DNA from: Burkholderiaceae bacterium | GTDB lineage: Bacteria; Pseudomonadota; Gammaproteobacteria; Burkholderiales; Burkholderiaceae_C | DNA: 64,000 bases | Direction: 5' to 3' | NCBI GenBank assembly: GCA_018780645.1 | Contig: JADMJJ010000007.1 | Coordinates: forward strand, 62,001 to 126,000 | Program-made: the position numbers and the translations under genes | Notes under the pieces: generated by a model | What the model was told of the DNA's origin: nothing | Databases searched by the model: none | What the model saw: only the letters and a program-made list of their open reading frames with translations | Shown here: positions 420-60,137 of the stretch, piece after piece | How the letters are laid out: each line of letters opens with the position of its first letter | Numbering within the stretch: the first letter of the stretch is position 1

Positions 420-2075
420 TTGAGTGCCCAACTCGACCCTCAGTCCAACGCGCCCGATGCCTACGACCTGCTTGTCGTCGGCGGCGGCATCAATGGCGCC
501 GGCATCGCCCGCGACATGGCCGGCCGGGGCTGGAAGGTGCTGCTGGTCGAGCGCGATGACCTGGCCTCGCACACCTCGTCTTCGTCGACCAAGCTGATAC
601 ACGGCGGGCTGCGCTACCTTGAGTACTACGAGTTCTCGCTGGTGCGCAAGGCCTTGCAGGAGCGCGAGGTGCTGCTGAAAAGCGCGCCCCACATCATGTG
701 GCCGCTGCGTTTCGTGATGCCCCATGACGCGGCGATGCGCCCGGCCTGGATGATCCGTATCGGCCTGTTCATGTACGACCATCTGGCCCGTCGCGAGGTG
801 CTGCCGGGCTCCAATGGCGTCGATCTGCGCAGCAGCCCGCTGGGCGCGCCGCTGAAGTCGCAATACACCCGGGGCTTTGTCTATTCCGATGGCTGGGTGG
901 ACGACGCCCGCCTGGTGCTGCTGAACGCACTGGACGCGCAGCGACATGGCGCGACCATATTGACGCGCACCGCCTGCGTCGAGGCGCAGCGCGATGCCGA
1001 GGGCTGGACGGCCACCTTGCAGAATGCTCACCAGGAAACGCTGGGCCGCCCCGAGTTTCCTGGCTCCCCCTCGGAGGGGCGGACGCCGCAAGGCGGCGGC
1101 CTTGGGGGCGCTCAGGGAAACAAGAGAACCATCCGTGCCCGGGCGCTGGTCAATGCCGCCGGCCCCTGGGCCGAGTCATTCCTGCGCGGCGTGGCGCGGC
1201 CGGCGCGGGGCGAGACACTGGCCACCAAGAGCCTGCGCCTGGTCAAGGGCAGCCACATCATCGTGAAACGCGCCTTCGAGCACGACCACGCCTATATCTT
1301 CCAGAACCCCGACAAGCGCATCATCTTCGCCATCCCCTACGAGCGCGACTTCACGCTGATAGGCACGACCGACGTCGAGCTGCAGGGTGATCCCGGTGTG
1401 GCACGCATTGCCAGCGACGAGCAGGCGTACCTGTGCGAGCAGGCCTCGCGCTATTTCAAGAAGGCGATCAGCAACGACGATGTGGCCTGGAGCTATGCCG
1501 GCGTGCGCCCGCTGCTCGACGATGCCTCGGGCGATCCGTCGGCCGTGACCCGCGACTATCTGCTCGAGCCGAACAAGGATGGCGCGCCGCTGCTCAGCGT
1601 CTGGGGCGGCAAGATCACCACCTTCCGCAAGCTGGCCGAGGATGCTGCCGATCTGCTCGGCGACATGCTGGGTCAGCGCCGTGCGGCCTGGACGCAGGCT
1701 GCCTTTCTGCCTGGCGGTGACCTGTCCGGCTGGATAGGCGCGGCGCAGCGCCCCGACACTGACTTCGAGCGCTTTGTGGCCGCCGTCGGCGCCCGCCATC
1801 CCTGGCTGCCGAGCGACGTGGCCCGCCGCTGGGCCCGGGCCTACGGTTCGCGCATCGATCATCTGATCGGCGCGGCGGCTTCACGCGGTGAACTCGGTGC
1901 TGAGGTGGCCCCCGGCCTGTACGAGATCGAGCTGCGCTATCTGCAGCGCGAGGAATGGGTGCTCAGCGCCGACGATGTGCTGTGGCGGCGCTCGAAGCTG
2001 GGCCTGCACTACACCGAGGCCCAGCGCGAGGCGGTGAAGCAATGGATGACCACCAATCAAGGAGCGGCCGCGTGA
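420..2075 (+). CDS. glpD: Aerobic glycerol-3-phosphate dehydrogenase (TTG start)
   Basis: YDLLVVGGGINGAGIARDMAGRGWKVLLVERDDLASHTSSSSTKLIHGGLRYLE FAD-binding motif; operon context. Confidence 0.95.
   Translation: MSAQLDPQSNAPDAYDLLVVGGGINGAGIARDMAGRGWKVLLVERDDLASHTSSSSTKLIHGGLRYLEYYEFSLVRKALQEREVLLKSAPHIMWPLRFVMPHDAAMRPAWMIRIGLFMYDHLARREVLPGSNGVDLRSSPLGAPLKSQYTRGFVYSDGWVDDARLVLLNALDAQRHGATILTRTACVEAQRDAEGWTATLQNAHQETLGRPEFPGSPSEGRTPQGGGLGGAQGNKRTIRARALVNAAGPWAESFLRGVARPARGETLATKSLRLVKGSHIIVKRAFEHDHAYIFQNPDKRIIFAIPYERDFTLIGTTDVELQGDPGVARIASDEQAYLCEQASRYFKKAISNDDVAWSYAGVRPLLDDASGDPSAVTRDYLLEPNKDGAPLLSVWGGKITTFRKLAEDAADLLGDMLGQRRAAWTQAAFLPGGDLSGWIGAAQRPDTDFERFVAAVGARHPWLPSDVARRWARAYGSRIDHLIGAAASRGELGAEVAPGLYEIELRYLQREEWVLSADDVLWRRSKLGLHYTEAQREAVKQWMTTNQGAAA
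1040..1116 (+). repeat. Dispersed ~75 bp palindromic repeat, copy A (in frame inside glpD)
   Basis: gctgggccgccccgagtttcctggctccccctcggaggggcggacgccgcaaggcggcggccttgggggcgctcagg; aligns by eye with 38808-38880 and 60067-60137. Confidence 0.8.
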
Positions 2076-12350: not shown

Positions 12351-12434
12351 GGCCGAAGGGGTTCAGACCTGGCACGGAACCTGCTAACTCTGTTCATCTT
12401 CAGTTGTCTCCTCCACTGCCTCTAGAGTGGATTC

Positions 12435-12467
12435 AAGCCTCAGGCCACAAGCCTGGGGCTTTTTTTG
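12435..12467 (+). terminator. Rho-independent terminator downstream of ppk2
   Basis: AAGCCTCAGGC-CACAA-GCCTGGGGCTT followed by T-run. Confidence 0.8.
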
Positions 12468-38478: not shown

Positions 38479-40227
38479 CTAACGGGCGGTCGCGGGCAAG
38501 GGCAGCGGCCTGCCCTCGGACTGCGCAGGCACGCGCAGTCCCAGCAGCCGGCTCAGGGTCGGGGCGATATCGGCCACCTCGACGCGGGTGTTGACCTGGC
38601 CCTGGCCAATCCAGCGCGGGCCGTAGCTCAGGATGGGCACATGGGTGTCATAGGCATGGGGCGTGCCATGCGAGCTGCCTCCCACCCGCGAGCTGATCAG
38701 CCAGTTCGGCTTGACCACCACCTGCAGCGAGCTGGCGATGTCCGGGTGCCAGGACTTGCGCATCGCCGCCAGGTGGGGCGTGCTCACGTCCTGGCTCTCA
38801 AGCAAGCGCTGGGCCGCCCCCGAGCTTGCCTGACCCCCTTGGGGGGCCTGACGCGAAGCGGCAGGTTTGGGGGCGCTCAGTAGCTGCTCGCGGGTGAACA
38901 CATCGGCGATGCCATCTACCTGCAGCAGCAGGGTCTTGGCCTCCTTGTCGACAGCGGCCGGATCGAGCTTCTTGGCCGCGATCAGCTTGCTGTCGAGCAG
39001 GACGCCTCCGCCCGACCAGCCCAGCGCCCACTTGCCCTCGCCGAACTTCTGGGCCAGGCCGGTGTTCAGCCAGGCCAGCGTCTGGCTCGGGTTCAGCCGG
39101 CCGGCGTCGAGGCCCTGGCTGCTGCTCCATTCCGGCGTGTCCACGAAACCATGGTCGGCGGTAAGCACGGCCACATAGTTGCCGGCGCCCACCTTCGCAT
39201 CCAGATAGCGGAAGAAGGCCTGCAGATGCTGGTCCAGCCGCAGCATGTGGTCGTGCGACAGGCGCGACTCGGGTCCGAAGGCATGGTTCACATAGTCGTG
39301 GCTGGACAGGCTGATCGACAGGATGTCGGGTGTGTCGTCCTGGCCCAGCGCCTCGCCCTCGATCGCCGCACGGGCGAAGGCCAGGGTCAGCTCGTCGGCA
39401 AAGGGGGTGGCCAGCAGATTGCCGTAGAACAGCGGGCCTGGTTTCTCGTTCTTGTCGCCGATCAGCGCCGGCAGCCTGTTGCCATTGCCGCTGTTGACCT
39501 GCCAGGCCTTGCCGTCGGGCACCGACCGTGTGTAAGCCGCCTCGGGCAGCAGGGCTGTCCAGCTCTGCTTGAAATAGGCATCGGCCGGCTTGGCCGCATT
39601 GAAGGTCTTGACCCATTGCGGATGGGCCGGCATGTAGTAGCTGCTGCTGGCGAACTGGCCGCTTTCGCCCATATACATATAGGCGGTGCCGAGCTTGCCA
39701 GCGGGCAGGATGGCGCCGCGGTCCTTGCCCGAGATGGCGATCACCTTGGCGCCGGGTCGCGCGCCACGCAGCACATCCCCCACGGTCTCGGCACGCAGAT
39801 TCCTGGGGCTGGTGCCGGCCAGCGGCGCGGTCTTGTTCTCCAGATACTGATGGGCCTCGTCTCCGGTGCAATAGACGGGCGCACCTGTGTTCGGGTTGCG
39901 CCATTCGTTGCTGATGATGCCGGTGCGGTGCGGATAGGCGCCGGTCAGCATCACCGCGTGGCCGGCCGCCGTCACGGTGTGGCCATGGCCGTAGTGGGCG
40001 TCCGCGAACCAGGCGCCGCGATCGAGAAAGCGCTTGAAACCGTCCGGTGCCAGCTGGTCTCGGTAGCCGGTGACCTGGCGCATCGGCAGCCCGTCCACCA
40101 CCATGAAGACCAGCAGCTTGGGCGGGGGCGTCGCGGCAACCGGTGCCGTGCCGCAGCCGACCAGCAGTGCGAGGCCGGCCAAGCTAAGCAGGGCGGCGCG
40201 AACCAGGGGGTGGTCAGTGAGCTGCAT
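38479..40227 (-). CDS. Alkaline phosphatase/type I phosphodiesterase-family lipoprotein
   Basis: Lipobox LALLVGCGTAP; LLVFMVVDGLPMRQVTGYRD...TVTAAGHAVMLTGAYPHRTGIISNEW; VAVLTADHGFVDTPE. Confidence 0.88.
   Translation of the reverse strand: MQLTDHPLVRAALLSLAGLALLVGCGTAPVAATPPPKLLVFMVVDGLPMRQVTGYRDQLAPDGFKRFLDRGAWFADAHYGHGHTVTAAGHAVMLTGAYPHRTGIISNEWRNPNTGAPVYCTGDEAHQYLENKTAPLAGTSPRNLRAETVGDVLRGARPGAKVIAISGKDRGAILPAGKLGTAYMYMGESGQFASSSYYMPAHPQWVKTFNAAKPADAYFKQSWTALLPEAAYTRSVPDGKAWQVNSGNGNRLPALIGDKNEKPGPLFYGNLLATPFADELTLAFARAAIEGEALGQDDTPDILSISLSSHDYVNHAFGPESRLSHDHMLRLDQHLQAFFRYLDAKVGAGNYVAVLTADHGFVDTPEWSSSQGLDAGRLNPSQTLAWLNTGLAQKFGEGKWALGWSGGGVLLDSKLIAAKKLDPAAVDKEAKTLLLQVDGIADVFTREQLLSAPKPAASRQAPQGGQASSGAAQRLLESQDVSTPHLAAMRKSWHPDIASSLQVVVKPNWLISSRVGGSSHGTPHAYDTHVPILSYGPRWIGQGQVNTRVEVADIAPTLSRLLGLRVPAQSEGRPLPLPATAR
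38808..38880 (+). repeat. Dispersed ~75 bp palindromic repeat, copy B (inside the phosphodiesterase CDS, antisense to it)
   Basis: gctgggccgcccccgagcttgcctgacccccttggggggcctgacgcgaagcggcaggtttgggggcgctcag. Confidence 0.8.
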
Positions 40228-40380
40228 GGATTTTCACGTTCTATGAGGTGGCTCAAGTGTGCCTGAGTGCGACCTGGGCACCATGCTGCAATGCGCCCGT
40301 CCGCATTGCCTTGTCGGCCTCAAGTGCCGGCGCGGGGGGCCGATGAAGGTACCTGTGTTCAACAACCGTCGGAGATACTG

Positions 40381-60044: not shown

Positions 60045-60066
60045 GGGCAGCTCCTCACAAGCAAAC

Positions 60067-60137
60067 GACGGGCCGTTCCCTAGTTTGCTTGTCCCCCTCG
60101 GGGGGCCTGGCGCCTAGCGACAGGTCTGGGGGCACGC
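60067..60137 (+). repeat. Dispersed ~75 bp palindromic repeat, copy C (intergenic)
   Basis: gacgggccgttccctagtttgcttgtccccctcggggggcctggcgcctagcgacaggtctgggggcacgc. Confidence 0.75.

What the first reader, a model, noticed from the sequence alone, without database searches (positions are those of the whole stretch)
1040..1116. Palindromic repeat inserted in frame into glpD (copy A of a 3-copy family)
The glpD product has a stretch LGRPEFPGSPSEGRTPQGGGLGGAQGN between ...WTATLQNAHQET and RTIRARALVNAAGPW, where I do not expect it from known GlpD proteins. The DNA (gctgggccgccccgag...ccccctcggaggggc...ggcggc...ttgggggcgctcag) aligns with 38808-38880 and 60067-60137. A mobile or expanding repeat appears to have entered a core metabolic gene without breaking the frame, adding about 27 residues.
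Basis: partly seen in the sequence, partly recalled or inferred. Interest (0 to 1): 0.72.

Follow-up and report, generated by a model that had tools for sequence, protein, structure and literature searches.

The report
Mobile palindrome inserted in-frame in glpD
A short self-folding DNA repeat that jumps around the genomes of Burkholderiales bacteria has landed inside the glycerol-metabolism gene glpD (and at least six other conserved genes of this genome) without breaking the reading frame, adding about 28 extra amino acids each time, much as the palindromic elements of Rickettsia do.

Summary
In this Roseateles genome (close to R. toxinivorans) glpD carries an 84-nt, 28-residue in-frame insertion at 1031-1114. 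It is absent from two congeners whose GlpD is otherwise 93-98% identical, and from all 21 other GlpD proteins aligned. The insert belongs to a 75-93 nt three-hairpin element with about 26 copies in this genome, not three. The loop GGGCCGyyCC(C)AAG is conserved; the first stem differs between copies, yet its arms match each other. Congeners hold empty sites for most copies, so insertion is recent.

At least seven copies sit in frame inside conserved genes (glpD, mnmA, queA, pbpC, a phosphodiesterase, two kinases); two more extend N-termini. Copies are open in 5.2 of 6 frames and host genes read different frames, which points to a tolerated selfish element rather than a conserved peptide. It occurs in 67 of 81 genomes of the bacterial family, up to 102 copies, is not in Rfam, and I found no description of it.

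It works like Rickettsia palindromic elements and intragenic REPs but does not meet REP criteria (no GTAG/CGTC tag, no copy near a RAYT gene). What mobilises it is unknown; a single-strand transposase acting in trans is inferred.

The parts
420..2075 (+). glpD (aerobic glycerol-3-phosphate dehydrogenase), 551 aa with the insertion
   Evidence: Pfam DAO + DAO_C; E. coli GlpD 2qcu E=2.7e-143
1031..1114 (+). 84-nt in-frame insertion (copy A of the element)
   Evidence: absent from congener genomes G001/G002, exact empty site
1026..1030 (+). GCTCA, left flank, target-duplication-like
   Evidence: empty site AATGCTCAGGGAAAC has it once, filled site twice
1110..1114 (+). GCTCA, right copy
   Evidence: as above; (T/A)CA at this position in 23 of 50 copies
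1031..1039 (+). hairpin 1, 5' arm X (CCAGGAAAC), sequence private to this copy
   Evidence: inverted repeat I1; X:X' covariation
1040..1054 (+). hairpin 1 conserved apical part (G-CT-GGGCCGCCCC-GA)
   Evidence: GGGCCG and the following CC invariant in 26 copies
1055..1063 (+). hairpin 1, 3' arm X' (GTTTCCTGG)
1067..1079 (+). hairpin 2 (CCCCTCGGAGGGG)
1081..1101 (+). hairpin 3 (GGACGCCGC-AAG-GCGGCGGCC), variable stem
1102..1109 (+). 3' tail TTGGGGGC
   Evidence: G-run at this place in nearly all copies
38798..38880 (+). copy B of the element; lies in frame (81 nt) in a type I phosphodiesterase gene on the minus strand
   Evidence: empty in both congeners; one continuous frame across the site; inside Phosphodiest domain
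38482..40233 (-). stop-to-stop frame of the phosphodiesterase that carries copy B
   Evidence: Pfam PF01663 3.7e-30 over residues 41-520, element at 453-479
60057..60137 (+). copy C, intergenic, upstream of the Shine-Dalgarno of a minus-strand gene; filled in G002, empty in G001 (CTCACA at both ends of the G002 copy)

Best explanation
A small non-autonomous mobile palindromic element (75-93 nt, three hairpins) transposed into glpD in the lineage of this Roseateles. It duplicated, or chose, the target GCTCA and added 84 nt, so the frame stayed open. Shown: recent insertion, dispersed family, in-frame insertions in at least seven conserved genes, strong pairing between the copy-private stem arms. 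Inferred: it is selfish and tolerated, because copies are nearly stop-free in all six frames and the survivors sit where a protein can absorb about 28 disordered residues (in GlpD the turn of a beta-hairpin). Inferred and less sure (about 40%): it moves as a single-stranded hairpin cut next to (T/A)CA by a transposase supplied in trans; the enzyme is not identified.
For: Empty sites in congeners, with most of 24 copies absent from one or both. About 26 copies against 2 reversed-control hits. Insertion length is a multiple of 3 in 9 of 9 measured coding insertions: 84, 84, 81, 75, 84, 84, 84, 87, 93 nt, whereas several intergenic copies are 74, 82, 83 or 85 nt. Own arm pairing -15.5 kcal/mol against -7.1 for permuted arms, 0 of 10000 permutations as low. 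Open frames 5.2 of 6 against 4.26 in shuffles, maximum 4.72. Host genes read the element on both strands and in more than one phase. AlphaFold2: residues 204-231 below pLDDT 50, between strands 196-202 and 235-245. dN/dS of glpD 0.05-0.08 on both sides of the insert. (T/A)CA at the right border in 23 of 50 copies against about 2 expected; TCA at the left foot in 21 of 50 against 4.3.
Against: No transposase has been tied to the element. Clear target duplications are seen only in a few of the best-preserved sites (glpD GCTCA, copy C CTCACA, L092 TGAGC, L071 ATGA, L096 TCATG); elsewhere only TCA is shared or nothing is clear. dN/dS measures the gene before and after insertion, so it does not prove that the present protein is active. 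The AlphaFold model has modest overall confidence (mean pLDDT 66.7).
Confidence: 0.88

Rival explanations
1. The element is a REP of the RAYT/IS200-IS605 system, mobilised by one of the genome's Y1 transposases.
For: Hairpins, small size, recurrent (T/A)CA borders; two Y1_Tnp genes in the genome.
Against: No GTAG or CGTC tag at the foot of the hairpin; the Y1 gene at C56 is bordered by a different GGAGTC...GACCCC palindrome; no element copy within about 1.5 kb of 32 Y1 loci; high-copy genomes G154 and G174 have no Y1 match.
Confidence: 0.2
2. The element is a functional regulatory RNA or protein-binding site kept for its structure, and the glpD copy is an accidental passenger.
For: Conserved loop and strongly covarying stem; many intergenic copies abut start or stop codons.
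Against: Most sites are species-specific and often empty in the nearest relatives; insertion within unrelated coding genes on either strand; no Rfam family matches.
Confidence: 0.07
3. A terminal-inverted-repeat MITE derived from a DDE transposon, with short target duplications of about 5 bp.
For: GCTCA on both sides in glpD and similar short duplications at a few other sites.
Against: The two tips are not inverted repeats of each other; the target is biased to TCA rather than random; no parent transposon seen.
Confidence: 0.2
4. The extra residues are an adaptive new part of GlpD.
For: Open frame kept, single full-length glpD found in the genome.
Against: The peptide is predicted disordered, is not shared with any relative, and other host genes read the element in other frames.
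Confidence: 0.04

Closest known systems
Rickettsia palindromic elements (RPE), Ogata et al. 2000/2002 (as reviewed in PMC10969869)
   Same: Palindromic mobile repeat that inserts in frame into unrelated conserved genes and adds a few tens of residues.
   Different: Different bacterial class and host base composition; about 80 nt rather than the ~150 bp given in the review; read in several frames and on both strands; private covarying stems.
Intragenic GTAG/CGTC REPs (Di Nocera et al. 2013, PMC3733652)
   Same: Small hairpin repeats, many intergenic and some inside ORFs, with dimers or groups adding 20-30 residues.
   Different: No GTAG or CGTC tag, three hairpins in one unit, no adjacent RAYT gene; the paper's main text names no Burkholderia, Acidovorax or Leptothrix.
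Cod-2 repeats (Cozzuto et al. 2008, PMC2267715)
   Different: Described there as very small; sequence not compared here.
MITEs such as ERIC, NEMIS and RUP
   Same: Non-autonomous, folded, dispersed, can fuse with genes.
   Different: Those carry terminal inverted repeats; here the tips are not inverted repeats of each other.

Membership tests
RAYT-associated REP (GTAG super-family) | GTAG-type tetranucleotide at the foot of the hairpin | tested here: not met
   borders are (T/A)CA and TCA, no GTAG
RAYT-associated REP (GTAG super-family) | copies flank a RAYT gene | tested here: not met
   no copy in 32 Y1 loci with about 1.5-kb flanks
RAYT-associated REP (GTAG super-family) | a Y1 transposase is present where copies abound | tested here: not met
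   G154 and G174 high-copy, no Y1 match at E<=0.001; G154 is 92% complete
CGTC REP | CGTC tag, 8-9 bp stem, CCA tail | tested here: not met
   element sequences; criteria from PMC3733652
Rickettsia palindromic element | in-frame insertion in unrelated conserved genes | tested here: met
   glpD, mnmA, queA, pbpC, phosphodiesterase, two kinases
Rickettsia palindromic element | sequence relationship to a described RPE family | not tested
   RPE sequences not at hand; the AT-rich host makes it unlikely (inference)
MITE of a DDE transposon | terminal inverted repeats | tested here: not met
   left tip X is not the complement of the right tip GGGGGC-NN
MITE of a DDE transposon | target-site duplication of fixed length | tested here: inconclusive
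   4-6 bp at the five best-preserved sites, only TCA or unclear elsewhere
Rfam RNA families | score above gathering threshold | tested here: not met
   no element copy in the window or in 20 element loci matches

The most novel reading that the evidence does not exclude
A family-wide mobile element of Burkholderiales that moves by a mechanism without Y1/RAYT or DDE ends, carries a private self-complementary stem in each lineage, and is a continuing source of in-frame protein insertions.
Probability: 0.3. Interest if true: 0.75.

Novelty: new variant of a known kind. Interest (0 to 1): 0.55.

Why it matters
In-frame palindromic insertions are best known from Rickettsia, bacteria that are hard to grow. 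Here the same process is seen in culturable environmental Burkholderiales, with exact empty sites in close relatives, so both the movement and the effect on proteins can be tested directly. It also warns that unexplained 25-31-residue inserts in proteins of this group (Roseateles, Variovorax and allies) may be element-derived rather than functional domains.

Tried and rejected
Idea that X' is an inverted copy of the target made at insertion: the empty sites show that X is mostly part of the element (glpD X and X' match each other exactly but match the flank only imperfectly), so ordinary compensatory evolution of a stem is enough. Link to the Betaproteobacteria toxic sRNA (RF02278) found at 12405: unrelated sequence. 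RNAalifold on the MAFFT alignment missed the variable stem because loop length differs by one base between subfamilies; replaced by the arm-permutation test, and model R1 was not used further. A recombination breakpoint at the insertion, suggested by 96% against 90% identity on its two sides: identity falls gradually towards the 3' end instead. Text searches for the sequence and for Burkholderiales repeats gave no description. The element in plasmid and phage collections: one Burkholderia arboris replicon, no phage.

Full report
What was claimed.

The insertion is real. GlpD of two congeners aligns to residues 1-203 and 231-551 of the window protein with nothing between. At the DNA level the empty site reads CAGAATGCTCAGGGAAACAAG. 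The window reads CAGAATGCTCA-CCAGGAAACG...TTGGGGGC-GCTCA-GGGAAACAAG, which is 84 nt longer, with GCTCA at both ends. None of 21 other Burkholderiales GlpD proteins has it. The named relative is Roseateles toxinivorans. glpD on either side evolves under strong constraint (dN/dS 0.05-0.08), and only one full-length glpD was found in the genome.

The family. A pattern from the shared core hits 32 times in the 5.95-Mb genome, against 2 hits of the reversed pattern. Inspection gives about 26 copies. Each has a first hairpin with a variable stem around a conserved G-NN-GGGCCG-yyCC(C)-AG top, a second hairpin CCCCCTCGGGGGG, a third hairpin with a variable stem, and a G-run tail. The stem arms of 50 distinct copies pair with their own partner at a mean of -15.5 kcal/mol. 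Arms dealt at random give -7.1, and none of 10000 permutations comes close. These 50 include copies from congeners and one Variovorax copy, so they are not all independent.

Movement. Of 24 copies whose flanks were sought in two congeners, most sites are empty in one or both. Only a few copies are shared, one of them by all three species. Borders are not random. After the final G-run, (T/A)CA stands at one exact position in 23 of 50 copies, about ten times background, and TCA stands at the left foot in 21 of 50 against 4.3 expected. Short direct repeats at the best-preserved sites are GCTCA (glpD), CTCACA (copy C), TCATG, TGAGC and ATGA. This leaves two readings open: a short target duplication, or a sequence-specific cut with no duplication.

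Other genes. Another sits in an ABC ATPase by Pfam alone. Two more lengthen the N-termini of an ABC permease and an ABC ATPase. All nine measured coding insertions are multiples of three, while several intergenic ones are not. The element reads open in 5.2 of 6 frames (shuffles 4.26), and its hosts read it in different frames and on both strands. A particular peptide is therefore not what is kept.

Effect on GlpD. The site corresponds to the stretch between residues 184 and 192 of E. coli GlpD 2qcu. The predicted model places residues 204-231 as a disordered loop joining two strands (overall confidence modest).

Spread. The tighter core pattern hits 67 of 81 genomes of the family, up to 102 times, with controls near zero, and some genomes of other families in the order. 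Elsewhere near-identical copies form tandem arrays with periods of about 77-91 bp.

What moves it. The two Y1 transposase genes of the genome, and 30 in relatives, have no copy nearby. Two high-copy genomes lack Y1 matches altogether. The element does not meet the tag criterion of either REP super-family. I infer a transposase acting in trans on the hairpin form, with about 40% confidence for a single-strand mechanism.

Literature. Intragenic REPs and RPEs are described (PMC3733652; PMC10969869), as is a small repeat read in different frames (PMC2267715). No description of this element was found in the held library or in Rfam. Subscription papers could not be checked, so novelty of the sequence family is provisional.

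Noticed in passing
window 12405-12466: Match above threshold to Rfam RF02278, Betaproteobacteria toxic small RNA (54.2 bits), one of two in the genome; unrelated to the repeat.
   Followed up: partly
window 38798-38880: Copy B lies in frame inside a type I phosphodiesterase gene on the minus strand; the site is empty in both congeners.
   Followed up: yes
G229:C9:222553-223024 and G174:C12:443514-443726: Near-identical copies of the element in tandem, period about 88-91 bp, in other Burkholderiales genomes.
   Followed up: no
L210:1060-1900: A Y1/RAYT gene bordered by a different palindrome (GGGGTCGGAGTC / GGAGTCTGACCCC), probably its own REP.
   Followed up: partly
L081, L085, L092, L096, L077: Many copies sit at or between a stop codon and the next Shine-Dalgarno or start codon, where they could affect translation of the downstream gene.
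   Followed up: no
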